From NCBI GenBank assembly GCA_002386525.1, contig DGIS01000025.1:705464-769463 (forward strand): a stretch of DNA of 64,000 bases, given 5' to 3'. Positions within the stretch are counted from its first letter, which is position 1; each line of letters opens with the position of its first letter. The notes under the pieces are model-generated. The model saw only the letters and a list, made by a program, of their open reading frames with translations, searched no databases and was not told where the DNA came from. The position numbers and the translations under genes are program-made. Below are positions 46,441 through 62,366 of this stretch, one piece after another. Source of the DNA: Sphingobacterium sp. UBA4616. Its GTDB lineage: Bacteria; Bacteroidota; Bacteroidia; Sphingobacteriales; Sphingobacteriaceae.

Positions 46441-49400
46441 TTAAAAGGTGGCGTCAATGGTTAAGAAAAAATTCTTTGTAGGCGGCAAATTATTATAGGT
46501 TTTAGCACGCGCATAGAGTGGATCAATTCCTAACTTATTTGCTTTCCAAAGAATACCTAAATTTCGTACGGCAGCGTTTACACCGACAGATTTAAACGGC
46601 GTACGCTTAAGTGAAGTTGACGGTACGCTATATCCCAACGATATCTGTTGAAAGCGTATATGGCTAGCATCAATGACCATCGGATCGGAATCCCTAAACC
46701 TGTTGAAGCTATTTGTATTTATGTTTTTTAAGCCCGGAACATTTGTTGTCGCTTCATCACCCGGATTTCGCCAACGCGCTGTCTGCATCTTGTTTGTGTT
46801 AAGCACGCCACCGAAAGTTCCTTGGAATTGTGGATAATTACCAAATGTTTCCAGACGCTTGACATTTCCCAGATCGTAGGTTATGCGAAAGCCGAGATTA
46901 ATACCTTTATATGAAAATGTATTCATAAAACCACCAAAGTAAGGCGCCGTTTTACGTCCCATATACACGAGATCTTCACGGACAAATATATTGCGTCCCC
47001 CTTGCGTACTCTTTACGATGTCACCGTTGGCTTTGGCGATTTGTGATTGTCCCGTCTCATCGAGGCCCGCCCACTTATAGGCATATAGATAATCCAAGGG
47101 CATCCCTTCTAAAATCGAACCATTGATGTAGTTACTAATATCTGTTGCTATTAAGCGTGAATCGGTAACTTTGTTGGTGTTGTAGGAAAAGTTAAGGGTG
47201 GAGCTCCATCGAAAGTCTTTCTTGCGAATGATAAGTCCCTGTATACCCAGATCGATTCCATTAGATTGCATTGTTCCGCCATTAAATTGGAGGTCTGTCC
47301 ATCCATATGTCGCATTATAAGGAAAAGTGTACAGGATATCACGTGTGTGTTTTTTATAAAGATCAAATGCGATGTTTAATCTGTTATTGATCAAACTAAC
47401 ATCAAGTCCGTAATTTTGCGTATAGACCTTTTCCCATCCAACCTCGGGATTTCGCGGTTGCGATATGGATGCCGGTATTTCACCTGTTGCATAATCAGCC
47501 CCTTCGACGTTGATGATGGTAACATTGGATCCGCCCTGTGGAACTGTACCACCGACACCATAGGTAATACGGAGGTCCAGCGCATTCAGCCAATCGACTT
47601 CTTGCATAAAACGCTCGGACTTGATATTCCATTTGGCACCAGCTGACCAGATTGGTTTAGCACGCTTCGATCTTGAAATACCAATCAACGTAAGATCGTC
47701 AAAACGTGCACTTGCAGACAAAATGTACCTGTCTTTAAGAAATGATAATGCTCCATTGGAGTAATAAGACATTTTGCGTAGGTTAGCTCTGCTAATGCCA
47801 TCTGAACCCGTAATCGACTGCTGCCAGCCCTGTATCCCCATAAAGCTACCAACCTGATTATAAGGAGCGATTGAATAGGTATCTTCATTAAAGCCATATC
47901 CCGTTTGTCTTGAGCTAAAGCCTGTTTGAGAACTAATCTCTGCTCCTGCAAGAAGATTTAAATTAACGAAGTCACCCCATGTCTTATTGACATTACCTTG
48001 CAAGCGAATATTATACTGTGTGGCATTTTGGTTTTGCAATGCGATTCTCCCGCCTTGTACGAAATTTCTGGTGAACGTATTATTTTGAAAATCGACAGTA
48101 GAATAATAATTTAAAAAGTCACGCATCGAATAACTTTTTAATTCGTCAAGATTTCGACTGTTTGCAATGGTACGTTGAAGCATACCTGACAGGCTTATGT
48201 TAGCCCAGCTAGTCACTTTGGCGTTGAGATCAGCATTAATTCTTATCCGATTGTCTGCAGTGGTATATTTGTTGTAGTCCAGTTCATCTATTGGACTATA
48301 GGTCCAGTCATACAATCCAATCTCTTTTAGATTTGCGGCTACAGACTCAGTAAAAAGCAATGATCGCCGATTTCTACTTCCATCGGGATTAACCAATAAT
48401 TCGTATGGCCTTAATCCCTCAGTCGAATTACCAATGGCGTTTGCCGCAACTTGGTTAGCAACAGTATTCGTATAATTATAATTCAATCCGGTTGTCAAAC
48501 TTAATCGTTGATTTAAAAAGTTCGTCGATAAAGTTGAATTCATAAAAAAGGACTGGGCCTGATTGGACCGGAATACGGGAACATCCTTTGCGTAGCTGCC
48601 CGAGAACGCATACGTTGTCCTTCCATTTCCACCTGAGAGGGAAAGGTTGTGCTGTTGGGTCACTGCATTCTGTAGCAGGTATTTCCGAATTTGGCTGGTA
48701 TTGTCAATTTGACCTAAACGATCGAGCTGTTTAGCTAACTCATCATCGCTAATCAATCCCTTTTTATTTTTATACATCCATTGAACCGCTTCACTGGCAG
48801 GCTTATTAGTATTAAAAGGTAGCCAATCCGAATTCCAATCTTCCGGATCAGCTATCCAGCCATAATCGAACATTTCCTTTTCAAAATCAATATACTGCGC
48901 AGTGGTCATCCGATCCAAGCTATTAAGATCTGCGGGAGCTGAAATACTGAGGCTGGTATTATAAGAGATGACGGGTTCGCCTACACGTCCCTTTTTTGTT
49001 TCAATGACGATAACACCATTTGCGGCCTGCGCACCCCATATGGAAGCTGCTGCCGCATCTTTAAGTACGGTAATACTTTCGATATCTGCCGGATTCAAAC
49101 GACTCAATATAGAATTGTTATCAAATTGCGTGGTATTTTTTACCAAGTCCTGATCGATTGCGGGAAAGCCATCTATGACAATAAGTGGACGCTTAGAATC
49201 GCCATCTGTATTGAAGGTATTTACTCCTCTGACGGTGATTGAATTCTTCACCGGGTCAACCTGAACACCAGGAATCATGCCTGCAATGCGATCCAAAAGA
49301 TTAATGGATGGCACTTCCTTCAACTGTTTAGCGGTAATTTGGCCAAAAGCCCCAGTTGCACGTTCTTTTGCGATTTTTTGGTATCCTGTCGACACAACTT

Positions 49401-49977
49401 CAACCTCATCCAGTTGATTGTTAACCGAGCCCAGGGTGACATTGATCTGTGTATCGCTGCCGATGACCTTTCGGGTAGGCTCCATACCAACATAAGAAAA
49501 AATGATTGCTTCTGCTGGATCCTTTAGACGCAGGGTATAGCTTCCGTCGCTACTGGTGGTTACACCCGACCGTACGGCGTAGCCATCCGGTATCACAGTA
49601 ACACCAGCAAGTGCTGTCCCGTTGTTATCTTTAACCTTACCCGTAATGACTTTCCAGAAGCGGTCGTCTCCATCATTGTCTCGTTTACCCCGCGAATCTT
49701 TTATAATCGTGAAGTAATTGTTCTGTACATAAAGAAACAAGAAGTTATTTGGATAAAGAAGTTCTTTTAACACGGTCTCCACAGGAAGCCTTTTGTTTTT
49801 CGGAATATGTTCACTGTTGACAAAGGCATCCCGGATCAAGCCCTCTTCATAGGAAAATTTAGTTCCGTAGATCCGGGTAACTTCGCTAAGAGCCTGACTG
49901 AGACTAGCTCTTTTTTGCGCAAAACTACCCGTGGTACTCAACAGGCAGACTATAGGCACAAGTAATTTAGTTTTCAT
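46441..49977 (-). CDS. SusC/RagA TonB-linked outer membrane receptor
   Basis: A 1178-residue receptor with a signal peptide, an STN signalling domain (about 20-95), a carboxypeptidase-like domain (about 108-186), a plug (about 195-340, with DAAAASIWGAQAANGVIVIE) and a full barrel. The STN domain connects it to FecR 2 and the ECF sigma at 51207. It lies 27 nt after FecR 2 and 12 nt before SusD. Intact, unlike the SusC at the left edge. Confidence 0.96.
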   Translation of the reverse strand: MKTKLLVPIVCLLSTTGSFAQKRASLSQALSEVTRIYGTKFSYEEGLIRDAFVNSEHIPKNKRLPVETVLKELLYPNNFLFLYVQNNYFTIIKDSRGKRDNDGDDRFWKVITGKVKDNNGTALAGVTVIPDGYAVRSGVTTSSDGSYTLRLKDPAEAIIFSYVGMEPTRKVIGSDTQINVTLGSVNNQLDEVEVVSTGYQKIAKERATGAFGQITAKQLKEVPSINLLDRIAGMIPGVQVDPVKNSITVRGVNTFNTDGDSKRPLIVIDGFPAIDQDLVKNTTQFDNNSILSRLNPADIESITVLKDAAAASIWGAQAANGVIVIETKKGRVGEPVISYNTSLSISAPADLNSLDRMTTAQYIDFEKEMFDYGWIADPEDWNSDWLPFNTNKPASEAVQWMYKNKKGLISDDELAKQLDRLGQIDNTSQIRKYLLQNAVTQQHNLSLSGGNGRTTYAFSGSYAKDVPVFRSNQAQSFFMNSTLSTNFLNQRLSLTTGLNYNYTNTVANQVAANAIGNSTEGLRPYELLVNPDGSRNRRSLLFTESVAANLKEIGLYDWTYSPIDELDYNKYTTADNRIRINADLNAKVTSWANISLSGMLQRTIANSRNLDELKSYSMRDFLNYYSTVDFQNNTFTRNFVQGGRIALQNQNATQYNIRLQGNVNKTWGDFVNLNLLAGAEISSQTGFSSRQTGYGFNEDTYSIAPYNQVGSFMGIQGWQQSITGSDGISRANLRKMSYYSNGALSFLKDRYILSASARFDDLTLIGISRSKRAKPIWSAGAKWNIKSERFMQEVDWLNALDLRITYGVGGTVPQGGSNVTIINVEGADYATGEIPASISQPRNPEVGWEKVYTQNYGLDVSLINNRLNIAFDLYKKHTRDILYTFPYNATYGWTDLQFNGGTMQSNGIDLGIQGLIIRKKDFRWSSTLNFSYNTNKVTDSRLIATDISNYINGSILEGMPLDYLYAYKWAGLDETGQSQIAKANGDIVKSTQGGRNIFVREDLVYMGRKTAPYFGGFMNTFSYKGINLGFRITYDLGNVKRLETFGNYPQFQGTFGGVLNTNKMQTARWRNPGDEATTNVPGLKNINTNSFNRFRDSDPMVIDASHIRFQQISLGYSVPSTSLKRTPFKSVGVNAAVRNLGILWKANKLGIDPLYARAKTYNNLPPTKNFFLTIDATF

Positions 49978-50004
49978 AAATTTCGATAGATTAGTGTTCG
50001 TTTT

Positions 50005-51033
50005 TTAATTAGGTTTTATTATTATTTGTTTGTTTTTCATTTCGATGTTTACATTCATAGTATGTTTGATAACAAAGAGGATGTCATCTATTTTTTTGAC
50101 TGGTATAACACCTGTAAATCGCTTATTGAGCAATGTTGGATCTTCTACTACAACTTGATAGCCATAGTTATCTTCCAATACATCTACAATATTTGCCAAG
50201 CTGTTATGTTCAATACTGAGTTCACCACGCGTCCAGGATAGCACCCTGTTAGCATCGTTAGTAACAACCTGATTTGCTTTTGCCGATGTATCATAGACGA
50301 AAGTCTCTCCTGGTTTTAGTATACGATCTTCACCGTTTTGTCCCTGAATACGAACGCTTCCCTCAAATAGAGCCACTTCGATACGTCCACGACGGTCTTT
50401 CACATTAAACTTTGTCCCCAACACAGTCAATGAAAGATCCCCCACGTGCACAACAAAGAAGTCGCTTTCGCGCAGACGGTTTTTAACGGCAGTATGTTTT
50501 ACCTCAAACATGCCTTCTCCTTCAAGCCAAACTTCGCGCGGTTTATCCGTTTTCCAACTGCGGACGTATGAAATGTGAGAGTTACTATTTAGTCTGATGA
50601 TAGAAGAATCCGGAAGGGAAAGTAGACGTTGTTCACCGAAGGCCGTATTTGTCTCTTTAGTCCCAAATTGGCTAACATCATATGCCACCACAATAAATAA
50701 CAAGATGGCTGCTGCAGATGCTGTCCACCGGAATAAAGTGCGTAAAATCCGACTACGTTGTTTTTTGCTTTCGTAGATTGGAATTTGTGCTTGAATCCTC
50801 GCCCAGCGCTGGTCACTACTTAAGGTACTTTGTGCAGTGGTCTGATTCTGGATCAATAAGGCCCATGTTTTGGCAAGAGCCATTTCGTCTGAAAGATGTG
50901 GATAATGAAGACTAAGTTCAGACCAAAAATCGGTTAAGGTAGCTTCCGGCATTAGCACCGCCAGCACAAAATCCTCATCCGCAAAAAAATCTGTTGCCTT
51001 ATAATCTTTATATTTTGATAATCGAGAGTTCAT
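50005..51033 (-). CDS. FecR-family anti-sigma factor 2
   Basis: A 342-residue regulator with a cytoplasmic N-terminal region, one membrane helix (about 103-125, WTASAAAILLFIVVAYDV), a FecR domain (about 130-235, with VLGTKFNVKDRRG) and a C-terminal DUF4974 module. It is the first gene of the SusCD-TlpA operon, 173 nt after the sigma gene at 51207, and should couple the STN domain of its SusC to that sigma factor. Confidence 0.95.
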   Translation of the reverse strand: MNSRLSKYKDYKATDFFADEDFVLAVLMPEATLTDFWSELSLHYPHLSDEMALAKTWALLIQNQTTAQSTLSSDQRWARIQAQIPIYESKKQRSRILRTLFRWTASAAAILLFIVVAYDVSQFGTKETNTAFGEQRLLSLPDSSIIRLNSNSHISYVRSWKTDKPREVWLEGEGMFEVKHTAVKNRLRESDFFVVHVGDLSLTVLGTKFNVKDRRGRIEVALFEGSVRIQGQNGEDRILKPGETFVYDTSAKANQVVTNDANRVLSWTRGELSIEHNSLANIVDVLEDNYGYQVVVEDPTLLNKRFTGVIPVKKIDDILFVIKHTMNVNIEMKNKQIIIKPN

Positions 51034-51206
51034 ACTGTTTTATATAGGTTACACCACTCGACAGAATTTTACCCCAATAAATTATATTTTTTTTAAAAAA
51101 AACAGACTTACCCAGTCAAATCATCATTAAACAGCGCTAATACTGATTATGATTGTAAATACTATCTATTATTTATTTCGAAAAAACTTGCAGATAGGTG
51201 AAAGAT

Positions 51207-51803
51207 TTAGTGATAACGCAGCTCGTTAAGTATATGGAGTAGTACCAATAAACCAAAAGTGCCAAAATGTTTCCTCAAACTATCCAATGCCCTGTAGTAC
51301 AATTTATAAGTATCTTTGGTCGAAAGGCCCATAATTTCGGCAATTTCGTCATACGGCAACTCTTCAAAAAAGCGCAGGTGGATAACTTCTCGTTGACGTG
51401 TGGTCATCTGCTGCAGCGCTTGATCCAGCTTATCTCTTACCTCTTGGGCACGTTCCTGACGGATCATACTGAGATCATGAGGTAGTTCGATGGTAAAGGG
51501 CAAATAATCAAGGGATGACTGAGCAATATCCGCCCTTCGCATGGATTGTTCTATTTTCTTGATCAGTGTGCGCCGGAATGCCTTAAACAGATAATTTTTC
51601 ACCGCGACATCTACACTTAAAGTTTCCCTATTGCACCATAGTTTAACAAATAGCTCTTGAATGCTATCTTCGATGATTTCTTCGTCTTGCGTAAATTTAA
51701 ATCCATAATTGAACAACAGCTGGTTGTAGCGTTCAAAAAGTATTTTGAACGAAGGTTCATGTCCAACTTGAAACATTTGCCAAATCTGTTGATCAGAGTT
51801 CAT
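51207..51803 (-). CDS. RNA polymerase sigma-70 factor, ECF 2
   Basis: A 198-residue ECF sigma with region 2 (about 20-95, DSIQELFVKLWCNRE and NYLFKAFRRTLIKK) and region 4 (about 130-180, REVIHLRFFEELPYDEIAEIMGLS). It is the presumed partner of FecR 2. A near-perfect TAGATTTG box lies at 51856-51863 but its upstream box is weak. It is divergent from the HU-like receptor gene. Confidence 0.94.
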   Translation of the reverse strand: MNSDQQIWQMFQVGHEPSFKILFERYNQLLFNYGFKFTQDEEIIEDSIQELFVKLWCNRETLSVDVAVKNYLFKAFRRTLIKKIEQSMRRADIAQSSLDYLPFTIELPHDLSMIRQERAQEVRDKLDQALQQMTTRQREVIHLRFFEELPYDEIAEIMGLSTKDTYKLYYRALDSLRKHFGTFGLLVLLHILNELRYH

Positions 51804-52125
51804 TTATAAATTTGAGCCGTTTTTGCTTTTCAGTTTAAGTAGATAAAATTTAATTCAAATCTAGCAATTTTTTTCGATCAATCTAATCATTGATTAGATA
51901 TGCATAGGCAATACTAGGTATACAAAAATAAGAAATACATATTACATCAGTATGCAATCAGGTAAACATGCCCCTATTTATCGATTTGCAATTGGTCGGG
52001 AACTGCCTATGCTATCGCATGACCCTAGCTATACATATTTCTGTCGCTCATTAGCGTCATTTCGTCTCATATCGCTAAAGGAACTTTTTTAGACCGATAA
52101 ATTTGAACCGTAATCAGATTTAAGA
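51804..52125. other. Divergent regulatory region with 19-bp palindrome
   Basis: 322 nt without a gene between sigma 2 and the TonB receptor. It has a minus-strand TAGATTTG box (51856-51863, RC of CAAATCTA) and a perfect 9-nt inverted repeat ATCTAATCA/TGATTAGAT at 51881-51899. Confidence 0.5.
51881..51899. promoter_or_regulatory. 19-bp palindrome, candidate operator
   Basis: ATCTAATCA (51881-51889) and TGATTAGAT (51891-51899) are perfect reverse complements with one central base, in the divergent region next to the sigma 2 promoter box. A dimeric regulator such as the LytTR protein might bind it, but LytTR sites are usually direct repeats, so the partner is uncertain. Confidence 0.5.
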
Positions 52126-54627
52126 ATGAATAGAAAAGAAACAATAGAACAGATCTCAAAACTATCCCAAGTATCAGCCCCTGAATGCGAAAGAGTCCTG
52201 GATGCACTCGAAATCGTACTCAGCCAAAAATTAGCGCGAAAAAAGGGGCTTCGACATAGCTTCGATTTACTCTATAAAATTATGGAAAAATTAAAGGATA
52301 AAATCGTCATTATATTCTTGTTCACCTTAATTTCTACGGCTGTTCATGCTCAGATTCCCCCAACACAAAAAATAGGCGGGGTCGTTACAGATCGATTGTC
52401 CGGCCAACAGCTCGCTGCCGTATCTATCCGAGTGTTGGAAAAACCAGGTTTGGTTGCAATAACCTCCGATAAGGGTGAATTCGTTTTGCCCAATCTTCCA
52501 GTCGGACGATATACCGTACAGGCTTATTGCTTAGGCTACGAGCTTACAGTGATTAAAGAGATTATGCTAACTTCTAAAAAAGAGATCGCATTAGAAATTG
52601 CAATGGATCCGACGCATTACGTATTGAAAGACGTGGTAGTGGCAGCCAATAAGGAAAGAGCTTCAAATAAAATGGCGCTGACTGGAGGACGTTTACTTCG
52701 GATTGAAGAAATTAATCGCTATGCTGGCGGAATGGATGATCCCGCCCGTCTGGTTAGTTCTTTTGCCGGGGTATCTTCAAGTCTTGGAAATAATGGCATC
52801 TCAGTACATGGGAATGCACCAAGTATGCTTCAGTGGAAACTTGAGGGAATAGAAATACCGAATCCAAATCACTTTGCAGATATAGCGACTTTGGGCGGCG
52901 GCATACTGACTTCATTGAGCACAAATGTTTTAGCCAACTCGGACTTCTATAATAGCGCCTTTCCTGCAGAATATAACAATGCCGTATCAGGGGTATTTGA
53001 CCTTAAATTGCGGACAGGAAATAATCGGAAACATGAACATACCTTCCAGGCAGGGTTATTGGGCTTCGATTTCGCTTCGGAGGGACCTTTTAGTACGAAT
53101 AATGATGCTTCTTATTTGATTAATTACCGCTATTCTACAACAGGCTTAATGAGCAAACTTAGCACAGGAGAAACTAATGGGCAGTTATTGGACTATCAGG
53201 ATCTAAATTTTAAATTAAACTTTCCGAGTAAGCATAAAGGAACATTTTCAATTTGGGGAAACGCATTAGCCGATAGGTTCCGTACAAAAAAAGAATCAGA
53301 ATCAAGCTGGAAGTATATGGATGATCGTAAATCCTCAAAAACAGACCAGATGTCTGCAGCAGCCGGCATTACCCATCGCTATTTTTTTGAGAATGGAGGA
53401 GTTCTTCGTACCACTTTGGCCACTACCCATTCAACTAATAAGGCAACCGAAGATATCTTCAACGATAGTACCGAAATGCCCTATTTAAATTTAAGAAACC
53501 GCTATACCAATGTGATTTTAACATCTTCCTTTGATAAAAAATATGCGGAGAAGTATAGCAATAAAACCGGCTTTACGGTAACAAACATGTATTACAACAC
53601 CCAGCTGGATCGTTCACCTTTTGTAGGAAAACCATTGCTGGCAATTTCCGAAGGAAAAGGGACTACCACATTGCTTTCAGCTTACAGCAGTTCATTAATT
53701 GAATTTAACCAAAAAATCTATGTAACATTAGGGCTCAATGCACAGCTATTAACCCTGAATAACCATTGGACGGTTGAACCACGAGCTGCTATAAAGTGGT
53801 CTTCAGGACCTAAAAGCTCGATTGCCATGGCTTATGGCCTACATAGCCGTATGGAGAAGATGGACGTATTCCTTGTAAAAGATAGAGGCAATGGCCAACC
53901 ACTAAACAAGGATGTTGATTTCACCAAAGCGCACCATATGTCTTTATCCTATCAATATAAACTGTCGGATAACATGCATATCAAACTAGAACCGTTTTAT
54001 CAATATCTCTTCCATGTGCCAGTAATTGCGGATAGCTCATATTCCATCCTTAACCGCAACCTATTCTACGTGGAAGATGCGCTGGTGAACCGGGGCAAAG
54101 GACAGCATGTCGGATTGGATATTACAATCGAGCGCTACTTACAAAAAGGTGTTTATTATATGTTGACCGCCACTCTATTTGATGCCAAATTTGCAGGTGG
54201 AGACGCCATTTGGCATAACGGCAAATTTAACAGACGTTTTATTGTTAATGGATTGACAGGCAAAGAATGGTTTATGGACAAACAGCAACGGGATCTACTA
54301 AGCGTTAACCTGAAATTGACCTTGCAAGGAGGAGAACGATATGCTCCGGTATTGGAAAAGTCTTCCCTTAACCATCCTGATAAAGAAATCCAATACGAGG
54401 AAAAAAATGCATTTGCTAAACAATTCTCCCCCATGTTTATCGCTAATTATTCGATAAGTTATAGACTTAACAGGTTGAAACGATCGCACGAGATTGCAAT
54501 CAAATGGCTGAATGTTACAGGCGCAAAAGAGTATTATGGACATCAATATAATCTAAATACAGGGGCCATAGAACCCAAAAAACAGGCAACATCACTTTTT
54601 AATATACTGTATAGAATGGATTTTTAA
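52126..54627 (+). CDS. TonB-dependent receptor with HU-like N-terminal extension
   Basis: An 833-residue receptor. Residues 1-52 (MNRKETIEQISKLSQVSAPE and on) look like the first half of an HU/IHF-type DNA-binding protein, ending before a signal peptide-like stretch (about 53-76, IVIIFLFTLISTAVHAQ). After that come a carboxypeptidase-like domain (about 83-165), a plug and a barrel. If translation starts at ATG 52282 the signal peptide is at the N-terminus as usual, and the first 52 codons may be an overlapping small protein or leader. Downstream genes follow within 18 nt. Confidence 0.85.
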   Translation: MNRKETIEQISKLSQVSAPECERVLDALEIVLSQKLARKKGLRHSFDLLYKIMEKLKDKIVIIFLFTLISTAVHAQIPPTQKIGGVVTDRLSGQQLAAVSIRVLEKPGLVAITSDKGEFVLPNLPVGRYTVQAYCLGYELTVIKEIMLTSKKEIALEIAMDPTHYVLKDVVVAANKERASNKMALTGGRLLRIEEINRYAGGMDDPARLVSSFAGVSSSLGNNGISVHGNAPSMLQWKLEGIEIPNPNHFADIATLGGGILTSLSTNVLANSDFYNSAFPAEYNNAVSGVFDLKLRTGNNRKHEHTFQAGLLGFDFASEGPFSTNNDASYLINYRYSTTGLMSKLSTGETNGQLLDYQDLNFKLNFPSKHKGTFSIWGNALADRFRTKKESESSWKYMDDRKSSKTDQMSAAAGITHRYFFENGGVLRTTLATTHSTNKATEDIFNDSTEMPYLNLRNRYTNVILTSSFDKKYAEKYSNKTGFTVTNMYYNTQLDRSPFVGKPLLAISEGKGTTTLLSAYSSSLIEFNQKIYVTLGLNAQLLTLNNHWTVEPRAAIKWSSGPKSSIAMAYGLHSRMEKMDVFLVKDRGNGQPLNKDVDFTKAHHMSLSYQYKLSDNMHIKLEPFYQYLFHVPVIADSSYSILNRNLFYVEDALVNRGKGQHVGLDITIERYLQKGVYYMLTATLFDAKFAGGDAIWHNGKFNRRFIVNGLTGKEWFMDKQQRDLLSVNLKLTLQGGERYAPVLEKSSLNHPDKEIQYEEKNAFAKQFSPMFIANYSISYRLNRLKRSHEIAIKWLNVTGAKEYYGHQYNLNTGAIEPKKQATSLFNILYRMDF

Positions 54628-54645
54628 TGTAATTTTAGTACCTAT

Positions 54646-55686
54646 ATGAGCCAAAGCAAACCGTATCATTTTTTATTTGCCTCCAATTATAGACCATGGA
54701 GGCATCTAACCTTTATTTTAACCTTAGTTATTATTACTTTTAATCAAACATTTATAGTGTATCAAGACATTATGTCTTCTTTGGGAAACACTATCTTTTT
54801 AATTTGTTTTCTCTCATTTGTCACTTACCTACTAACAACATATCTGAATTATTTTTACCTCATACCAAAGTTCTTGTTAAAGGAAAACTATACCATTTAT
54901 ATCCTTTTGTTAGTATCTTTTGTGGTAGCGCTTATGGGCTGCACGCTTGTTTTGGAATATTCCATACGCGCAATTTTGAGTCTACCGCATCGCATAACAT
55001 CCTATAGCAATCCAATTATCCTAATAGACAGTCTATCTTCCTCAGCAATGACTATAATCTGTCTATGGAGCATGTCAGTTATAAAACTCTTTCGAAAATG
55101 GAATAAAAAGAACGAAGATGTGATGATGCTGGAGCAGAACTTTCTTGAAACAGAAGTAAACAAACTGAAAGGGCAAGTTTCGCCAATCTTTATGTCGAGA
55201 GCCTTACGTAAAGCGGCCTTAATAACCGCATCAGATCCACAAAAAGCCTCACAAATATTGATGTTACTCGGTCATTTACTGCGCTACCAACTCTATGACT
55301 GCGATAGAAATAAAGTTTTCCTTAATTCCGAAATAATCTTCCTAAAAAACTTACTACAATTAAAAAAATTTATTGAAGATAGCCGTTTTGAATATGTTCT
55401 GGAGGTAAAGGGAAAAACCAACAATTTGCTGATTTCTCCTCTTTTATTAATCGTATTGATACAGTCCCTGCTGATAGCAAATGAAATTAAAAGCTTAAGT
55501 ATTAACGTTGAAATTTCAGAAAAAAAAATACGCTTTATCGTAAACTATGAGAACACTTATCTATTCCCCCCGGAATACAAAATGGAAATAACCGACAAAT
55601 TAAATATGCTCTATCCTGATTTATATATATTTACTATTGAATCCGGAAATATCAGTCTTCAACTAGATCTTAAGGAATGGAAATAG
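54646..55686 (+). CDS. LytS-type histidine kinase homologue lacking phospho-acceptor His (pseudokinase)
   Basis: A 346-residue membrane protein with about four helices (to about residue 150) and a C-terminal region aligned with LytS kinases. Where the family has QINPHFLFN, this has QVSPIFMSR at 177-185, so the phospho-acceptor His is Ile181. The catalytic N- and G-boxes are also not recognisable. It overlaps the intact kinase downstream by 10 nt and follows the receptor by 18 nt. It is probably a pseudokinase that modulates the kinase, perhaps as a heterodimer. Confidence 0.85.
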   Translation: MSQSKPYHFLFASNYRPWRHLTFILTLVIITFNQTFIVYQDIMSSLGNTIFLICFLSFVTYLLTTYLNYFYLIPKFLLKENYTIYILLLVSFVVALMGCTLVLEYSIRAILSLPHRITSYSNPIILIDSLSSSAMTIICLWSMSVIKLFRKWNKKNEDVMMLEQNFLETEVNKLKGQVSPIFMSRALRKAALITASDPQKASQILMLLGHLLRYQLYDCDRNKVFLNSEIIFLKNLLQLKKFIEDSRFEYVLEVKGKTNNLLISPLLLIVLIQSLLIANEIKSLSINVEISEKKIRFIVNYENTYLFPPEYKMEITDKLNMLYPDLYIFTIESGNISLQLDLKEWK

Positions 55687-56735
55687 CCGTAGAAAATAAA
55701 GAAATTGCTTTCTTAATTGAAGATCGCTACAGCATACACAGGCATCTTTGTATGCAACTATTTATGCTGTTAATTTCAATTGGGATATTCTTCGATGCGC
55801 CTGATAAACTAAACCTATCTTTCGACAGAACTTGCGGTTGGGTAGCCTACTATTTGTTTATGAATATGCTGGTTTATGTAAACGTTTACCTGCTATTCCC
55901 CTTCTTTTTAGCCAAAGATAAGCTGATACATTATTTAATCGCTGTCGTGTTATTTTCCGTATTTGCTTTATTGATAGTGATGGTCCTGCAAAATATGTTC
56001 TACGATATCGCAGTCAGCCGAAACGATCCCAGCGCTACAGCGATATTTCTCAGTTTAGCATCCAGCTTACTGGCAATCATCCTATTTATTTTCGGCACTT
56101 CATCGCTTTTACTCTTTAAGCCTTTAATAAAGAGCAAGATGAAGCAGCAGGAGTTACAAAAAGCAACTACTGAATCGGAACTCAAATTTTTAAAGAGTCA
56201 AATCAATCCTCATTTTTTATTCAATACGATTAATAATGCCAATATACTGGTGGATGAAGATCCTAACATGGCAGCCCATATTCTAACCAAACTCGATGAT
56301 TTATTGCAATACCAGTTCACTAACAACAGCAGGGATAAAGTTTTATTGTCTGACGATCTATGTCTATTGACAGACTATTTGGAATTGGAGAAAGTCAGAA
56401 GGGACCAATTTGAGTTCAATATAAAAATTTGGGGAGATAGCAATAAAGTAATTGTTGCTCCTTTGTTATTCATTCCTTTTGTAGAAAATGCTGTTAAACA
56501 CAACCTGAACAGTAATGGCATATCTTATGTTAATATATCCTTTCAATTAGAAAAAGAATCCCTTATTTTTATATGTGAAAATTCAAAATCTATAAACCAA
56601 AGGCAAACAGAAAGGGGGGGTATCGGATTGAGCAATATCGTTCGTAGATTACAGTTGCTTTACGAAAATCGGCACGCTTTAGAAATAGAAGAAACAGAAC
56701 AAAATTATATCGTAAAATTAACGCTACTATTATGA
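55677..56735 (+). CDS. LytS-type sensor histidine kinase
   Basis: A 352-residue membrane kinase of the LytS/His_kinase family. About four membrane helices precede a cytoplasmic kinase domain with QINPHFLFN (phospho-acceptor His179), an N-box PFVENAVKH (about 266-275) and a C-terminal G-box RGGIGLSNIVRRL. It starts inside the pseudokinase gene and its stop overlaps the response regulator start (ATGA), so all three are translationally coupled. Confidence 0.94.
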   Translation: MEIAVENKEIAFLIEDRYSIHRHLCMQLFMLLISIGIFFDAPDKLNLSFDRTCGWVAYYLFMNMLVYVNVYLLFPFFLAKDKLIHYLIAVVLFSVFALLIVMVLQNMFYDIAVSRNDPSATAIFLSLASSLLAIILFIFGTSSLLLFKPLIKSKMKQQELQKATTESELKFLKSQINPHFLFNTINNANILVDEDPNMAAHILTKLDDLLQYQFTNNSRDKVLLSDDLCLLTDYLELEKVRRDQFEFNIKIWGDSNKVIVAPLLFIPFVENAVKHNLNSNGISYVNISFQLEKESLIFICENSKSINQRQTERGGIGLSNIVRRLQLLYENRHALEIEETEQNYIVKLTLLL

Positions 56736-57433
56736 GATGTATCATTGTAGATGACGAGCCTATAGCGCGTAAAGGAATAAGGAAACTAGTCGATCAGATT
56801 GCATCTCTTGAACTTCTTGAAAGTTTCAACAATGCTGTTTCTGCGGGTACATTTATACAACAAAACGCTGTTGATTTAATCTTTCTGGATATCAATATGC
56901 CGGAAATTAACGGAATTGAGTTTGCACAAAATATTCCCAAAAATACGCTTGTGATTTTTACCACCGCTTATTCCGAATATGCTGTAGACAGCTATGAGGT
57001 CGACGCAATCGATTATCTTGTTAAACCTATTGATACCGTTCGTTTTCGTAAAGCTGTAGACAAGGCGATTGTTTATCATGGACTTCTTTTGGATGAAGAG
57101 AATAAAAATTTAGAGCAAATCACGGATGATTATATTTTTGTAAAATCTGACCGTAGATTTTTTAAGATCAATCTCAACGAAATTCTTTTTATTGAATCTC
57201 TTAAAGATTATGTCATTTTCCAAATGGAAGATCAACGCGTGATTACACGTATGACCATAAAGAATATACATGACTGGCTTCCAAAATCTATTTTCTTACG
57301 GATAAATCGCTCCTATATCATCAATAAACATAAAATCGACTCATTTGACCATAATGACGTGTTTATCGACAAATATGAAATCGCGATTGGCAAAACCTAT
57401 CATGATACCTTTTTTCAAGAGATTCTCCCTTAA
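56732..57433 (+). CDS. LytTR response regulator
   Basis: A 233-residue regulator with a receiver domain (VDDEP at 6-10, phospho-acceptor Asp53 in FLDINMPEIN, Lys near 103) and a C-terminal LytTR DNA-binding domain (about 130-230, FFKINLNEILFIESLKDYV). It is the obvious partner of the overlapping LytS kinase. It likely controls the receptor and peptidase genes on either side. Confidence 0.95.
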   Translation: MRCIIVDDEPIARKGIRKLVDQIASLELLESFNNAVSAGTFIQQNAVDLIFLDINMPEINGIEFAQNIPKNTLVIFTTAYSEYAVDSYEVDAIDYLVKPIDTVRFRKAVDKAIVYHGLLLDEENKNLEQITDDYIFVKSDRRFFKINLNEILFIESLKDYVIFQMEDQRVITRMTIKNIHDWLPKSIFLRINRSYIINKHKIDSFDHNDVFIDKYEIAIGKTYHDTFFQEILP

Positions 57434-57491
57434 TACTTTTTAATTTAAGCTGGCCAGCCTATTTTGAAAGTCAATTATTTCCCATACAGTT

Positions 57492-58790
57492 ATGAAAAAA
57501 ATATTTACTCTTCTCTTTATTATCCATCTTACTGCGCAGGCTTATGCACAACGTAAGCAATATGAAACAGCCAATATCAACTCATGGTTTGAAGAGCTCA
57601 AAACTGCCTCAGATCAGAGTTTCAAGTTATGGAATAAAAGTATATACGGACCAATTCTTCTTATTGATCCCGCCACACGCACAATCTATGCCAACGAATT
57701 GGATGGAAAAAAAGCTTTAAAACCATCAGCTAACTTATATACTGGAATTCTACCTCAGGAGGTCAATTTTTCTAACACGGCACTGGATTGGAATGACAAG
57801 AGGTGGGCAATGATTATGTTGCCACTTCCAGAAAACAGGGATGATCGTATAAATCTGCTTGCACATGAGTCATTTCATCGTATACAACCTGATTTGGGTT
57901 TCTCACTAAATAATGCGAACAATAATCACCTCGACGAAAAAGATGGCCGGATTAGCTTACGTCTTGAATTTGAAGCTTTAAAACAAGCTTTAATGTCCAC
58001 ACATAAAAATGACATGAAACGTCATCTCACCAATGCCCTATTTTTTAGAAAATATAGATACATGTTATTCGATGAAGCTGCTAAAAATGAGAATTTATTG
58101 GAAATTAACGAAGGAATTGCCGAATTTACAGGAATAATAGTCAGTGCCCGCAGCGATGAATCGACAAAACAATATCTTATAAATGGTATTAACCGATCTC
58201 AAAACAATCGCACCTTTGTAAGATCATTTGCCTACCAAACGACGCCAACTTATGGTTATCTGCTGTATAAAAAGGATAACGATTGGAATAAAAAAATAGA
58301 TAAAGAAACTGACCTAACAGCATTATTTATTCGCAAGTTTGCAATTTCTCTCCTTCCGCCAACTGAACAAAATTTTAAGAATCTTTCCAAAGCATATAAT
58401 GCAGCTGTAATTTTTGAAGAAGAAAATAAAAGGGATGCTGAAAATAAACGCTTAGTCAAAACTTACAAAAACAAGTTTGTCGAATCTTCTCATTTTGAAA
58501 TTCATTTCGAAAAAATGAACTATTCTTTCGACCCTAGAACCATCATTCCGATCGAAAACTTGGGCACATACTATCCCACTACCCGAATTACAGATGCTTG
58601 GGGGATTTTAGATGTCACAAATGGGGCTTTAATTAGTCCTGATTGGAAAAAGATATCCATCACTAAACCTATATCCATTGAAAAAAATCTCATTAAGGGG
58701 GATGGATGGACACTAGAGCTCAATAGCAATTACACGATAGAAATTGATCAACAAAACAATTTTTACTTAAAGCATGTAGAAATAAAATAA
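57492..58790 (+). CDS. Secreted HExxH metallopeptidase-like protein
   Basis: A 432-residue exported protein with a signal peptide (1-19, AYAQ). The zinc site HExxH is HESFH at 125-129, followed by a Glu-rich segment LRLEFEALKQAL and NEGIAEF (Glu207 or Glu211), so it resembles the gluzincin pattern with a distant Glu third ligand. No named family is certain. It comes 58 nt after the LytTR regulator and could process or degrade a peptide ligand of the receptor. Confidence 0.8.
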   Translation: MKKIFTLLFIIHLTAQAYAQRKQYETANINSWFEELKTASDQSFKLWNKSIYGPILLIDPATRTIYANELDGKKALKPSANLYTGILPQEVNFSNTALDWNDKRWAMIMLPLPENRDDRINLLAHESFHRIQPDLGFSLNNANNNHLDEKDGRISLRLEFEALKQALMSTHKNDMKRHLTNALFFRKYRYMLFDEAAKNENLLEINEGIAEFTGIIVSARSDESTKQYLINGINRSQNNRTFVRSFAYQTTPTYGYLLYKKDNDWNKKIDKETDLTALFIRKFAISLLPPTEQNFKNLSKAYNAAVIFEEENKRDAENKRLVKTYKNKFVESSHFEIHFEKMNYSFDPRTIIPIENLGTYYPTTRITDAWGILDVTNGALISPDWKKISITKPISIEKNLIKGDGWTLELNSNYTIEIDQQNNFYLKHVEIK

Positions 58791-58866: not shown

Positions 58867-59571
58867 TCACTTCGCTATTGAAGCCAAACCTTTATTTTGA
58901 AATTTCTTGAAAAAATAGAGAACCAATAAAAACTGTGTATAGCCATATACCGCATCTTCTACAGGAATCGTCAGTATCCTGATGCCCATAAATTCCATTG
59001 GGTTGTAATTCACTATCGGCGATTCCAATCCAGTTCCCGTGAGTATACCATTCACAGGTAAAAATCCCAACATGAGCAGGGTAAAAACCAAAGAGGCTTG
59101 CGTAATCCATTGCACGCGTAAAACAAAATGGAAAATCAACAGTGTTAAAATAGTGACTACAGCGGTTACCAGGGTATAAATTCGATCTGTATAACGGAGA
59201 GCAACCACGGCGCATATAATGATGCTTACAAAAACGACGATGTTGTTAAAGGCGGAAAGGGATTGCAGTTTAAAAAATTTGTCAATGCAAAAATAAGTAA
59301 AAATACAAGAAAAAGGAATGAAGATAAAGAATAGCCACTCTTCTATTGGCAGTCCTGCTATCACCAGTCCTAAAGTATATCTTGTGTCAAACCACCAAAC
59401 TCCCTCACTCGTAAACCACACATCCCAAGCGATAAAAAATATAGCAACAAGCGCAGCTGCTTTTAAGAATGGAAAAAATTCACGGTCGAATCGAAGCCGC
59501 TTGTCGAAGGATGCGACAAAACAGATTACTACCGTAAAGAATAAGATAAGCGAATAAGTATATTGCATCAT
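58867..59571 (-). CDS. Lycopene beta-cyclase, CrtYcd type
   Basis: A 234-residue membrane protein made of two similar lycopene-cyclase halves. The acidic motifs are LPIEE at 74-78 and IPVED at 202-206, with six to eight membrane helices. It converts lycopene to beta-carotene. The start overlaps the CrtZ stop (ATGA) and it is last in the second carotenoid operon. Confidence 0.9.
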   Translation of the reverse strand: MMQYTYSLILFFTVVICFVASFDKRLRFDREFFPFLKAAALVAIFFIAWDVWFTSEGVWWFDTRYTLGLVIAGLPIEEWLFFIFIPFSCIFTYFCIDKFFKLQSLSAFNNIVVFVSIIICAVVALRYTDRIYTLVTAVVTILTLLIFHFVLRVQWITQASLVFTLLMLGFLPVNGILTGTGLESPIVNYNPMEFMGIRILTIPVEDAVYGYTQFLLVLYFFKKFQNKGLASIAK

Positions 59572-60026
59572 ATTTTTTCATTGTTAGAATACATTTTAAA
59601 GTATTTCATTGGCACATACAGAAAACCGAAACATTCCCCTTCTTCCTTGCCCAAATGTTTGTGATGCTGCTTGTGAGCACGCCGAAGAGCCAAAAAATAA
59701 CGATTATTTGTTTTACTCATCCATTTGAAACGCTGATGTATAAAGATATCGTGAACGAAAAAATAAGCCAAACCATACAGCATAATCCCAATGCCGATAT
59801 AAAAAAGATAATTGTAATCTCTTAAAGAGCCAAAATACATTAGGGCGATGGTCGGAACAGCAAAAATAATGAAGAAGTAATCATTTTTCTCCAAAAATCC
59901 CTCGTTACTATGATCATGGTGATCCCTATGGAGCATCCATAAGAAGCCATGCATAATATATTTATGAATTAACCAGGTAGCGCCTTCCATGGCGATAAAA
60001 GTGAGCAGTATAATAATCATGTTCAT
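59568..60026 (-). CDS. crtZ: Beta-carotene hydroxylase
   Basis: A 152-residue membrane di-iron hydroxylase of the fatty-acid hydroxylase superfamily. The His clusters are HKYIMH (21-26), HRDHH (33-37), HDIFIH (92-97) and HKQHH (118-122). It converts beta-carotene to zeaxanthin. It lies 20 nt after phytoene synthase 2 and overlaps the lycopene cyclase gene by 4 nt. Confidence 0.95.
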   Translation of the reverse strand: MNMIIILLTFIAMEGATWLIHKYIMHGFLWMLHRDHHDHSNEGFLEKNDYFFIIFAVPTIALMYFGSLRDYNYLFYIGIGIMLYGLAYFFVHDIFIHQRFKWMSKTNNRYFLALRRAHKQHHKHLGKEEGECFGFLYVPMKYFKMYSNNEKI

Positions 60027-60046
60027 ATTGCGATAAGCTGATGGAT

Positions 60047-60883
60047 TTATAAATAAGCCGCCTTATAGCGCACGTAACTTTTAACTGCGACATAAGCTTT
60101 TTGAATATTAGGTATTCTAATCCTATTTTCCAAAATTTCTTCAGAAGATTTCTTTCGGATCTGTGAAAAGAGAGAGAGATAATATTTATAAGCTAAATAG
60201 ACTCCAAACTTAGACGACGCAGGTAACTTCTTGATTCCCAAAAGTGCTTCTTTAAATTCGGTATGAATTTCCTCTTCGATACGACGTTTCATGATATTAT
60301 CGAATTGGCCCATATCCAAATTTGGAAAATAGGTGCGTCCAAGCACCTGATAATCTTCTTTTAGATCGCGTAAAAAATTGATTTTTTGAAATGCCGAACC
60401 GAGCTTCATGGCATAAGGCTTTAGCTCTTCATAGCGCTGACGGTCGCCTTCACAAAAAACCTGTAGACACATCAGTCCCACGACTTCTGCAGAACCATAA
60501 ATATATTCCTTGTAGCGTTCTGAATTGTACTCAACTTTGTTGAGATCCATCTCCATACTATGAAGAAATTGATTGATAAGGGACATATCAATATTATATT
60601 TGCGTACGGTTTCCTGAAAAGATTGCAGGATAGGGTTTAACGAAATACCTTCATCTAAAGCATTGGTGGTTTCCAAATAAAGTCGCCCCAATAACCGTTG
60701 CTTGTCATAACCATGAAAACTATCGACAATTTCATCAGCCAATCGTACATAACCATATATCGCATAAATACTTGAACGAATGCTCGGCTTTAGAGCCAAA
60801 ATACCGAGCGAAAAACTTGTACTATACTTTTCAGTTGTTTTTTTGCTCACTTCATAAGCGAGTTCATCAAATAGTTTTTTCAT
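60047..60883 (-). CDS. crtB: Phytoene synthase, copy 2
   Basis: 278 residues from ATG 60883 (a TTG 27 nt upstream is not used in the family). The Asp motifs are DEIVD at 50-54 and DLKED at 173-177. It is a near-twin of copy 1 at 37025, also on the minus strand. The gene starts 4 nt after the CrtI stop and belongs to the second carotenoid operon. Confidence 0.95.
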   Translation of the reverse strand: MKKLFDELAYEVSKKTTEKYSTSFSLGILALKPSIRSSIYAIYGYVRLADEIVDSFHGYDKQRLLGRLYLETTNALDEGISLNPILQSFQETVRKYNIDMSLINQFLHSMEMDLNKVEYNSERYKEYIYGSAEVVGLMCLQVFCEGDRQRYEELKPYAMKLGSAFQKINFLRDLKEDYQVLGRTYFPNLDMGQFDNIMKRRIEEEIHTEFKEALLGIKKLPASSKFGVYLAYKYYLSLFSQIRKKSSEEILENRIRIPNIQKAYVAVKSYVRYKAAYL

Positions 60884-60887
60884 GATC

Positions 60888-62366
60888 TTATAATTTACGC
60901 AATAATTCAATGGCTTCTTTGGCGACTATCTTACCCGATATAATGGATGGAGGTACCCCGGGGCCGGGCACCGTCAGCTGCCCTGTATAAAAAAGATTCT
61001 TAACTTTCTTGTTCCTGATCTTCGGTTTCAATACCGCTGTTTGTTTCAATGTATTTGCTAATCCATAAGCATTTCCGCCATAAGCATTATAATCGCTTAC
61101 AAAGTCGCTCACACAGTAACTTCTTTTATATACGATCTGTTCATATAACATATTTGAACCAGTATGCTTTTCTAGACGCTTTAACATATGAATAAGATAT
61201 TTTTCACGCGTTTCTTCATCGTCCGAAATAGCTGTAGCCAATGGCATTAATAAGAAAAGATTCTCCGTATTTGCAGGCGCCACATTGGGATCCGTTTTGG
61301 ATGGACAACAAGCATAAAACAAAGGATTCTGAGGCCACTTCTTTTCGCCATAGATACATTCAATATGATCGTCCAATGGATGCTCAAAAAACAAGGTGTG
61401 ATGCGTTAAATTAGGAATAGGAGACTTCATACCTAAGTAATATATCAAACTGGATGGTGCAAACGTTCTGGTTTTCCAGTAATCCTCATCGTAGTTTCTG
61501 AACTCTTTATCTAATAATGTTTCAATATGATGATAATCTGCCGAGGCAACCACAACATCATAATCATGATACACTCCGTTAATCTCCAGCGAACTGATCG
61601 TATTATTTTTAACCCTCATTCCAGCGACATTATGATCGAAATGAAAAGTTACGCCTTGCTTCTCAGCCACCTGTTGCATCGCTAGCACCAATTGAAAAAA
61701 ACCTCCTTTTGGATAATGAGTACCTAATGCATAACCGCCATAATTCATTAGGCTATATAAGGCCGGAATATCTTTGGGTGAAGCACCCAAAAATATAACA
61801 GGAAATTCCATTAATGTGCGTAGCCTCTGGTCCTTAAAATATTTAGCAACATAGGATCTAAAATTAGAAAGCAGATCGAGCTTAAAAGCACTAAGAGCAA
61901 TCTTAGGGGACAGAAATTCACTCCAATTGTGACAGGGTTTATTGACAAAGTCGCGCATGCCTACCTCATACTTAAATTTGGCAGCCTCCATAAATTTATC
62001 CAGCTGCTCACCCGCTCCAGGTTCGATCTGCTCAAACAACTGCTTTAATTCCGGATAAGATTCGGGTACGCTAATCTGTCCTGAACTAAATATCATTTCA
62101 AATTGCGGATTGAGCGAAACGAGCTCAAAAAAATCAGCTGTACTGCAATCAAAATCTAAAAAAAATGACTCAATGATATCAGGCATCCAGTACCAGCTTG
62201 GTCCCATATCAAATTTAAATCCTTCAACTGTGTCAAACTGTCTCGCCCTCCCACCGGGCACCGTATGCTTTTCATAAACATGTACGTCGCATCCAGCCTG
62301 AGCGAGATAAGCCGCAGCTGAAAGACCTGAAAAACCCGCACCTATAACTGCTACCTTCTTCTTCAT
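60888..62366 (-). CDS. crtI: Phytoene desaturase
   Basis: A 492-residue FAD-dependent desaturase that makes lycopene from phytoene. The FAD motif GAGFSG is at 9-14 with the Glu-binding YEKH, and the C-terminal motif near 456-480 reads FYTGQLTVPGPGVPPS. The start region is duplicated upstream (62354-62406). It is the first carotenoid enzyme gene downstream of MarR 2. Confidence 0.96.
   Translation of the reverse strand: MKKKVAVIGAGFSGLSAAAYLAQAGCDVHVYEKHTVPGGRARQFDTVEGFKFDMGPSWYWMPDIIESFFLDFDCSTADFFELVSLNPQFEMIFSSGQISVPESYPELKQLFEQIEPGAGEQLDKFMEAAKFKYEVGMRDFVNKPCHNWSEFLSPKIALSAFKLDLLSNFRSYVAKYFKDQRLRTLMEFPVIFLGASPKDIPALYSLMNYGGYALGTHYPKGGFFQLVLAMQQVAEKQGVTFHFDHNVAGMRVKNNTISSLEINGVYHDYDVVVASADYHHIETLLDKEFRNYDEDYWKTRTFAPSSLIYYLGMKSPIPNLTHHTLFFEHPLDDHIECIYGEKKWPQNPLFYACCPSKTDPNVAPANTENLFLLMPLATAISDDEETREKYLIHMLKRLEKHTGSNMLYEQIVYKRSYCVSDFVSDYNAYGGNAYGLANTLKQTAVLKPKIRNKKVKNLFYTGQLTVPGPGVPPSIISGKIVAKEAIELLRKL

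What the first reader, a model, noticed from the sequence alone, without database searches (positions are those of the whole stretch)
52126..58790. Receptor, pseudokinase, kinase, LytTR regulator and HExxH peptidase as one system
Five plus-strand genes are closely packed and three are overlapping. The first kinase has QVSPIFMSR in place of QINPHFLFN, so the phospho-acceptor His is lost and the neighbour keeps it (His179). Pairing a degenerate LytS with an active one, downstream of a TonB receptor and upstream of a secreted zinc peptidase, suggests a new outer-membrane ligand-sensing circuit in which the pseudokinase may link receptor state to the active kinase.
Basis: partly seen in the sequence, partly recalled or inferred. 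Interest (0 to 1): 0.75.

Follow-up and report, generated by a model that had tools for sequence, protein, structure and literature searches.

The report
Receptor operon with a pseudokinase subunit
A family of outer-membrane receptors in Bacteroidota bacteria comes packaged with a two-protein sensor, one half of which has lost its enzyme motifs but has been kept across distant species, plus a switch protein that seems placed to turn the receptor's own genes on; the neighbouring peptidase looks like a bystander.

Summary
The five genes exist as described, and the first kinase is degenerate: no phospho-acceptor His, N-box or G-box. It is not decaying. Its relatives form one clade of pseudokinases, encoded directly before an active LytS kinase (53 pairs in 51 loci), then a LytTR regulator (49 of 53), usually behind one TonB-receptor subfamily (41 of 53). 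Starting from the receptor instead, 27 of 80 fetched loci carry both kinases plus regulator; in the receptor tree 69 of 71 rows of one clade do. A neighbouring receptor clade has STN domains and FecR/sigma genes instead (8 of 8 upstream regions). The operon promoter has 21-bp direct repeats and, in 33 of 36 loci, a -7-like box exactly 38 bp on: a LytTR site placed for autoactivation (window 52039-52105). The HExxH protein does not belong: in the loci read it adjoins the operon only in the window and its two closest relatives. The pseudokinase most likely forms a heteromer with the kinase; this, the direction of regulation and the ligand are untested.

The parts
52039..52072 (+). LytTR-type operator: two direct half-sites, TTCTGTCGCTCAT and TTTCGTCTCATAT, 21 bp start to start
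   Evidence: 21-bp period enriched upstream of 42 orthologous operons, 19 observed against 1.4 +/- 0.9 in plain shuffles (the window's own site is too degenerate to be among the 19). Assigned in the window by a matrix trained on these same regions: score 27.0, next best in the 64 kb 14.3
52098..52105 (+). -7 box TAAATTTG, 38 bp after the start of the second half-site
   Evidence: same offset in 16 of 36 loci with the strict box; 33 of 36 at 38 and 1 at 37 with a relaxed box. TAnnTTTG as the Bacteroidota -7 consensus is recalled, not from a call
52126..52281 (+). HU-like N-terminal hairpin mini-domain (52 codons), in frame with the receptor ORF; the conserved domain is 58 codons and runs to 52299
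   Evidence: Pfam PF00216 E 0.001, below the curated cut-off; 27 of 30 family members match PF00216 at E<=0.1; AlphaFold2 pLDDT 85.5; dN/dS 0.20 and 0.16 over 52 codons
52282..54627 (+). TonB-dependent receptor with signal peptide, CarboxypepD_reg domain, plug and barrel; no STN domain
   Evidence: Pfam PF13620/PF13715; plug and barrel assigned by eye and by kinship, no Pfam plug or barrel hit
54646..55686 (+). LytS-type pseudokinase: 4 TM helices, DHp without His, CA domain without N- and G-boxes
55677..56735 (+). LytS-type histidine kinase with all catalytic motifs: His179, N-box, G-box
56732..57433 (+). LytTR response regulator, Asp53 in the receiver domain
   Evidence: Pfam PF00072 and PF04397; Asp53
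57492..58790 (+). secreted HExxH protein, judged not part of the system
   Evidence: no hit in 80 pseudokinase loci; adjacent only in L222 and L223 of 80 receptor loci; 22 of 301 genomes; no Pfam hit

Best explanation
The unit is an autoregulated receptor circuit: HU-like mini-domain, TonB receptor, pseudokinase, kinase, LytTR regulator. The receptor takes up or binds an unknown ligand. The two LytS proteins form a heteromeric inner-membrane sensor through their DHp helices: the second supplies ATP binding and His179; the first supplies no chemistry but keeps the dimerisation helix and the membrane part, and acts as the signal-responsive regulatory subunit. The kinase phosphorylates Asp53 of the regulator, which binds two direct repeats 21 bp apart just upstream of the -7 box and activates the operon, receptor included. 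Shown by sequence: gene order, losses, selection, clustering in one clade, operator and its fixed phasing to a promoter-like box. Inferred: heteromer, DNA binding, direction of regulation (activation), that the signal is the ligand or its uptake, and what the HU-like element does.
For: Pair: 53 pairs in 51 loci; second kinase has His, N-box and G-box in 53 of 53, the first an EN in the N-box in 1 of 53 and G.G in 1 of 53 (the first lacks His in 53 of 53 by the selection rule). Without that rule, starting from the receptor: 27 of 80 fetched loci have two kinases, all 27 with the regulator, first without His in 25 of 27, second with His in 27 of 27. 40 of 53 overlap, 50 of 53 lie within 10 bp. 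Pseudokinases (63 rows) and partners (59 rows) need one change of label each on a 144-row tree. Distance correlation over 38 complete quartets is highest for pseudokinase-kinase, r 0.90, against 0.74 for kinase-regulator; permuted maximum 0.24. Constraint: CA region 0.32 in the pseudokinase against 0.57 in the kinase, H-box 0.50 against 0.91, second DHp helix 0.54 against 0.53, with R213, L216 and Y217 invariant in 54 of 54 and variable in the kinases. One open frame of 584 codons without N, L299, joins a pseudokinase lacking its CA domain to an active kinase. Receptor linkage: 69 of 71 rows of one receptor clade, 27 of 29 counting only rows fetched through the receptor. Operator and promoter phasing. 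In 5 of 5 Sphingobacteriaceae genomes the operator pattern is found at the operon, with one further hit, inside an ORF.
Against: No interaction, phosphotransfer, DNA-binding or expression data. The distance correlation compares members of one protein family, which may share rates. L224 and L243 keep a His in the first kinase, so loss of His is common, not universal. 12 of 53 pairs have no such receptor called upstream: L010, L013, L040 are cut or at contig ends and L028 has a broken receptor ORF, but L021 and L022 (second pairs), L038, L047, L053, L057, L074, L079 have other neighbours. L268 has a receptor of the clade but no kinases. 4 of 53 pairs lack a called regulator (L006, L008, L014, L079). 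Tree support is modest: 84 (pseudokinases) and 66 (partners) SH-aLRT, with long branches. Between L222 and L223 themselves dN/dS is 0.27 for the pseudokinase and 0.36 for the kinase, on very few changes. The operator pattern was written from these operators, and its reversed control gave 6 hits in the same five genomes, as many as the pattern itself, so the genome scan shows where the sites lie, not an excess.
Confidence: 0.6

Rival explanations
1. The pseudokinase is a decaying duplicate of the kinase with no function.
For: Against L222 and L223 its dN/dS is twice that of the window's kinase (0.22-0.23 against 0.11), and its catalytic region is much less conserved. Its ORF is broken in some loci (L024, L041).
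Against: Intact in most loci across several families; one clade of 63 rows; invariant residues of its own; dN/dS well below 1.
Confidence: 0.04
2. The kinase works as a homodimer; the pseudokinase acts elsewhere, for instance as scaffold for the receptor, TonB or the regulator, or as a phosphatase partner.
For: The kinase has every catalytic motif, and solo relatives without pseudokinase stand in 17 of the 80 loci. The second DHp helix could serve regulator binding as well as dimerisation.
Against: Tight gene coupling, highest distance correlation with the kinase, one fusion to it.
Confidence: 0.22
3. The receptor is only cargo: the kinases sense something unrelated in the membrane, and the regulator happens to control an uptake gene.
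For: The pseudokinase model shows no periplasmic sensor domain, only short loops; the receptor lacks STN; some pairs have other neighbours; the closest sister group of the receptor clade, 14 rows, has no kinases nearby and by eye no STN.
Against: Linkage to one receptor clade; a neighbouring clade of the same receptors is wired to FecR and sigma. The pseudokinase's second periplasmic loop (topology inferred) is more conserved than the kinase's (0.31 against 0.18).
Confidence: 0.2
4. First reader's five-gene circuit with the HExxH peptidase as output or ligand processor.
For: The peptidase is adjacent in the window and in L222 and L223.
Against: No hit in the 80 pseudokinase loci. G549, G584 and G590 have both operon and peptidase, far apart. 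1076 homologues; among the 120 listed, the named ones are mostly Chryseobacterium.
Confidence: 0.04

Closest known systems
FasBCA of group A Streptococcus (PMC12675982, abstract and passages read)
   Same: Two 6-TM kinase-like proteins and one regulator in an operon; two-hybrid heterodimer without homodimers; authors propose that FasC is a pseudokinase and hypothesise that FasA acts only at fasX
   Different: There the proposed pseudokinase FasC keeps the phospho-His (H246) and the partner supplies catalysis. Here the pseudokinase lacks both, and the operon holds a TonB receptor. Sequence kinship was not tested
DivL-CckA of Caulobacter and the ChrS pseudokinase of Corynebacterium (PMC12189002 and PMC9491836, passages read)
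   Same: A catalytically dead histidine kinase modulates an active one
   Different: DivL is not LytS-type (recalled) and the ChrS pseudokinase arose in laboratory evolution; neither is tied to an outer-membrane receptor in the passages read
FecA-FecR-FecI surface signalling (mechanism recalled)
   Same: A TonB receptor co-encoded with its own signalling genes; related receptors here have STN, ECF sigma and FecR
   Different: This receptor has no STN domain, and pseudokinase, kinase and LytTR regulator stand where FecR and sigma would be expected
YpdA/YpdB and other LytS/LytTR two-component systems
   Same: LytS-type kinase and LytTR regulator; YpdB half-sites printed in PMC4847170 are also 21 bp apart (passages read; spacing counted by me)
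   Different: One active kinase, no pseudokinase partner (recalled)
HU/IHF family
   Same: Mini-domain matches the HU alpha1-alpha2 hairpin; all 34 Foldseek hits read as HU/IHF-type histone-like proteins, 32 of 34 at 0.6-1.3 A over 34-38 residues
   Different: Beta arms absent, third helix instead; Foldseek E-values 0.9 or worse, it being so short

Membership tests
LytS/LytTR two-component system | LytS-type kinase with H-box, N-box and G-box | tested here: met
   kinase 2: His179, FVENAVKHN, GGIGL
LytS/LytTR two-component system | receiver with Asp plus LytTR DNA-binding domain | tested here: met
   PF00072, PF04397; Asp53
LytS/LytTR two-component system | direct-repeat operator of about 21 bp period | tested here: met
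   by sequence; binding itself not tested
histidine pseudokinase | same fold, catalytic residues lost, gene kept | tested here: met
   PF06580; no His, N-box or G-box; model matches GanS and DesK kinase domains; dN/dS 0.22-0.23
histidine pseudokinase | no autophosphorylation | not testable with these tools
   needs an assay
FecA-type signalling receptor | STN domain and FecI/FecR next door | tested here: not met
   no STN in the window's receptor nor in L001 or L007. Met in a neighbouring clade: STN in 5 of 5 tested, sigma and FecR in 8 of 8 upstream regions. The window does hold a FecR and a sigma gene, but on the other strand with another receptor
FasBC-type heteromeric sensor | two kinase-like proteins heterodimerise | not testable with these tools
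   one natural fusion only
HU/IHF DNA-binding protein | alpha-helical hairpin | tested here: met
HU/IHF DNA-binding protein | beta saddle and arms for DNA binding | tested here: not met
   58 aa, three helices, no strand

The most novel reading that the evidence does not exclude
A further way of outer-membrane receptor signalling: a receptor family whose other branch signals through STN, FecR and sigma is here wired to an obligate pseudokinase-kinase heterodimer and a LytTR autoactivator, with an HU-like mini-domain (released by signal peptidase where it is fused, made separately elsewhere) acting in trans as a regulator of the switch.
Probability: 0.22. Interest if true: 0.85.

Novelty: new variant of a known kind. 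Interest (0 to 1): 0.7.

Why it matters
It gives a natural, conserved, compact case of a histidine pseudokinase whose partner, receptor, regulator and promoter can all be named, so how dead kinases steer live ones becomes testable. It also suggests that one receptor family is wired to two unrelated signalling modules, which would let the transmission step from outer membrane to cytoplasm be compared side by side.

Tried and rejected
Fusion in L051: a 702-aa frame joins both kinases, but the contig has an ambiguous NN stretch and a frame change against its relative L063; rejected as an artefact. L299, with no N, was kept.

Peptidase as a member: rejected.

'Replacement' of FecR/sigma by the kinase module: weakened on checking. 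The immediate sister group of the paired receptors, 14 rows, has no kinases nearby and by eye no STN (FecR and sigma were not sought there), so the ancestral wiring is not known; the odds of the novel case were lowered from 0.25 to 0.22 for this.

Pattern search for targets outside the operon, six Bacteroidales genomes: 13 matches in 5 of 6 genomes (none in G006), reversed control 3. Four lie before this operon's first gene (L307, L308, L313, L316). One extra intergenic site, L312, lies 83 bp before another TonB-type receptor in G004; L311 is near a contig end; the other seven lie inside ORFs read on the other strand. Wider targets were not pursued.

Literature: eight searches showed no description of this operon in the held open-access library; subscription papers and preprints are not covered. 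Passages were read in five papers (PMC12675982, PMC12189002, PMC9491836, PMC4847170, PMC4227749); the rest were seen as listings only.

Rows dropped: the operator matrix was trained on the regions it scores, so one search is the less biased test; of its 19 loci, at least four (L011, L033, L045, L048) have their repeat away from the motif, and L023/L027 and L031/L041 are close relatives. 36 of 42 regions passed the score cut. The receptor tree left out loci with one kinase ORF (L271, L282, L293, L299) and receptors under 700 aa; its 118 rows hold 101 different sequences, as some loci came in twice. Of 184 receptor matches listed regions were fetched, mostly the highest scoring ones not yet in hand; those searches scored only up to 3, 3, 8 and 10 candidates a genome, so their tallies are lower bounds. 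Among the 49 loci without kinases, five (L172, L252, L275, L277, L278) have 1.2-2.5 kb of sequence behind the receptor. The pair table needs both ORFs of at least 300 aa, so loci with a short or broken kinase ORF (for example L024, L025, L029, L042, L061, L063) are not in it.
Full report
What is there. Five plus-strand ORFs lie at the stated places. Kinase 2 has QINPHFLFN with His179, an N-box and a G-box; kinase 1 has QVSPIFMSR and has lost all three motifs. Its AlphaFold2 model (pLDDT 83.3, pTM 0.53) keeps four membrane helices, DHp-like helices and a CA-like sheet; its best PDB match is the kinase domain of GanS, followed by DesK. The receptor ORF starts with 52 codons that are not receptor.

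The pseudokinase is a family. Of 83 homologues, 70 were aligned and read: 61 (P0001 to P0066) lack the phospho-acceptor His, nine (P0067 and below) have it. A scan of one genome each of 84,980 species kept the best 80 of 459 confirmed stretches. In 62 of these 80 loci at least one kinase ORF lacks the His; 17 hold solo active kinases (Flavobacterium, Chryseobacterium, Algoriphagus, Dyadobacter, Chitinophaga, Mucilaginibacter and others); the last is L051, set aside as an artefact. With both ORFs of at least 300 aa there are 53 pairs in 51 loci, 40 overlapping and 50 within 10 bp; 49 have the regulator behind and 41 a related receptor in front. Loci come from Sphingobacterium, Pedobacter, Parapedobacter, Bacteroides, Parabacteroides, Tannerella, Dysgonomonas, Butyricimonas and others.

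Descent. In a tree of 144 kinase rows, grouped by motif, the 63 pseudokinases and the 59 active partners each need one change of label (support 84 and 66, long branches present, so one origin is likely but not proven). Some Sphingobacteriaceae (L016, L017, L018, L020) sit among Bacteroidales in both halves of the tree, as if the pair had moved together. Patristic distances of pseudokinase and kinase correlate at r 0.90 over 38 quartets, more than kinase-regulator (0.74), regulator-receptor (0.68), pseudokinase-receptor (0.68), pseudokinase-regulator (0.65) or kinase-receptor (0.58); since both are LytS proteins, shared rates may contribute.

Selection. Between the window and its relatives L222 and L223, dN/dS is 0.22 and 0.23 for the pseudokinase, 0.11 and 0.11 for the kinase, 0.10 and 0.10 for the receptor, 0.05 and 0.06 for the regulator, 0.20 and 0.16 for the HU-like domain, 0.17 and 0.11 for the peptidase. 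L222 against L223 gives 0.27 for the pseudokinase and 0.36 for the kinase, on very few changes. By region the pseudokinase has relaxed where chemistry was (CA 0.32 against 0.57, H-box 0.50 against 0.91) and not in the second DHp helix (0.54 against 0.53), where R213, L216 and Y217 are invariant in 54 of 54 rows and variable in the kinases; most membrane parts are about equal or slightly lower, and the second periplasmic loop (topology inferred from the model) is more conserved than the kinase's (0.31 against 0.18). This is the pattern expected of a regulatory subunit that dimerises and senses. A second apparent fusion, L051, was rejected.

Receptor linkage tested from the other side. The receptor was sought in 301, 301, 123 and 101 genomes of the families of G001, G011, G012 and G010 (Sphingobacteriaceae, Bacteroidaceae, Tannerellaceae, Dysgonomonadaceae by the names of the seed loci). 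Of 184 matches 80 regions were read: 27 have two kinases plus the regulator; 4 have one kinase ORF (L271, L282 and L293 with 1.7 kb or less of sequence left behind the receptor, and the fusion L299); 49 have none. First kinases lack the His in 25 of 27; L224 and L243 keep it but lack the N-box. In the receptor tree the paired receptors fall in one clade (support 95), 69 of 71 rows paired, or 27 of 29 counting only rows fetched through the receptor; the two others are L268, a real exception, and L172, whose contig ends 1.2 kb after the receptor.

Two kinds of wiring. A neighbouring clade, 44-48% identical to the window's receptor, has receptors of about 880 aa. Five of five tested carry the STN domain, and in eight of eight upstream regions an ECF sigma factor and a FecR stand upstream on the same strand, in some with a further gene between. 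The window's receptor and its orthologues L001 and L007 have no STN. So receptors of one family are wired either to FecR and sigma or to pseudokinase, kinase and LytTR. Which came first is open: the immediate sister group of the paired clade, 14 rows, has no kinases nearby and by eye no STN.

The promoter. In 250 bp upstream of 42 operons, the window among them, 9-mers repeated with at most one mismatch are enriched at a spacing of 21 bp (19 of 42 against 1.4 +/- 0.9 in plain shuffles) and its double, 42 (10 of 42 against 1.2 +/- 0.8); spacing 41 shows a small excess (5 against 1.4 +/- 0.7), and other spacings reach at most 4. The window is not among the 19, and at least four of the 19 are repeats away from the motif. 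YpdB half-sites printed in PMC4847170 are also 21 bp apart (spacing counted by me). In the window the site is 52039-52072. A -7 box of the Bacteroidota type (consensus recalled) begins 38 bp after the second half-site starts in 16 of 36 loci in strict form, and with a relaxed box at 38 in 33, at 37 in one, at 59 in one and nowhere in one of 36; shuffled tails hold the strict box anywhere in 3%, while the relaxed box had no shuffled control. The box was not used in finding the repeats. Fixed phasing of this kind fits an activator bound just upstream of RNA polymerase. In five Sphingobacteriaceae genomes a pattern written from these operators was found at the operon in 5 of 5, with one more hit, inside an ORF; the reversed control pattern gave 6 hits. 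So the regulator may serve mainly its own operon, at least for sites this close to the pattern.

The HU-like element. It occurs in 29 of the 80 loci (E < 0.01): fused in frame ahead of the receptor's signal peptide in eight (L001-L003; L028, L030, L032, L033, L035) as in the window, otherwise as a small separate ORF, in 13 loci 20-40 bp before the receptor, but also near the pseudokinase where no such receptor is called (L046, L047, L061). In the receptor-first set it is present in 12 of 27 loci with two kinases, 1 of 4 with one and 0 of 49 with none, with about 1 kb upstream searched where the contig allowed. Among 14 genomes holding the operon, 10 have a strong match (E < 1e-15): nine at the operon, and one, G013, elsewhere as an orphan; weaker matches cover only the HU part in ORFs of 90-143 aa, as in ordinary HU proteins (apart from the second half of the G007 duplicate), and G004, G005, G009 and G014 have no strong one. 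A draw of 395 genomes of the phylum gave 2 matches at E <= 1e-8, one of them the centre genome. In L018, L037 and L055 the receptor's signal peptide begins with what looks like a remnant of its first helix (by eye). The model is three helices, the first two like HU, without DNA-binding arms. Its role is unknown; constraint at the protein level argues against a mere leader.

The peptidase. Adjacent only in the window, L222 and L223. In Sphingobacteriaceae it is in 22 of 301 genomes; three more of these (G549, G584, G590) have the operon, with the peptidase far away. It is not part of the unit.

Verdict. A real, conserved receptor circuit, not found described in the searches named, and a new variant of two-component and TonB-receptor signalling. 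Its heart, a heteromeric pseudokinase-kinase sensor, is well motivated and untested.

Noticed in passing
46441-51803, minus strand: A SusC-like TonB receptor (Pfam Plug) with a FecR gene (50005-51033) and an ECF sigma gene (51207-51803) lies back to back with this operon, so the window itself holds both wiring types side by side.
   Followed up: partly
58867-62366, minus strand: Carotenoid-type genes follow the peptidase: lycopene cyclase, phytoene synthase family, flavin amine oxidoreductase family; 59568-60026 had no Pfam hit.
   Followed up: partly
L089, 1486-1674: Orphan stand-alone HU-like mini-protein in the Butyricimonas genome G013, without a receptor behind it.
   Followed up: partly
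L312, site at about 1501: An operator-like repeat 83 bp before a second, different TonB-type receptor in G004; a possible further target.
   Followed up: partly
L008 and L019: The HU-like small ORF is a tandem duplicate of the domain (131 aa ORF).
   Followed up: partly
L047: Two pseudokinase-kinase pairs on opposite strands in one locus, and two HU-like ORFs before one of them.
   Followed up: no
L053, L057, L074, and the second pairs of L021 and L022: Pairs next to other outer-membrane-type or unrelated genes instead of the usual receptor; these may show what else such sensors serve.
   Followed up: partly
L222 against L223: Synonymous divergence is very low in the two kinase genes (0.005 and 0.014) but 0.15-0.30 in receptor, regulator, HU-like part and peptidase, as if the kinase pair had been exchanged by recombination.
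   Followed up: no
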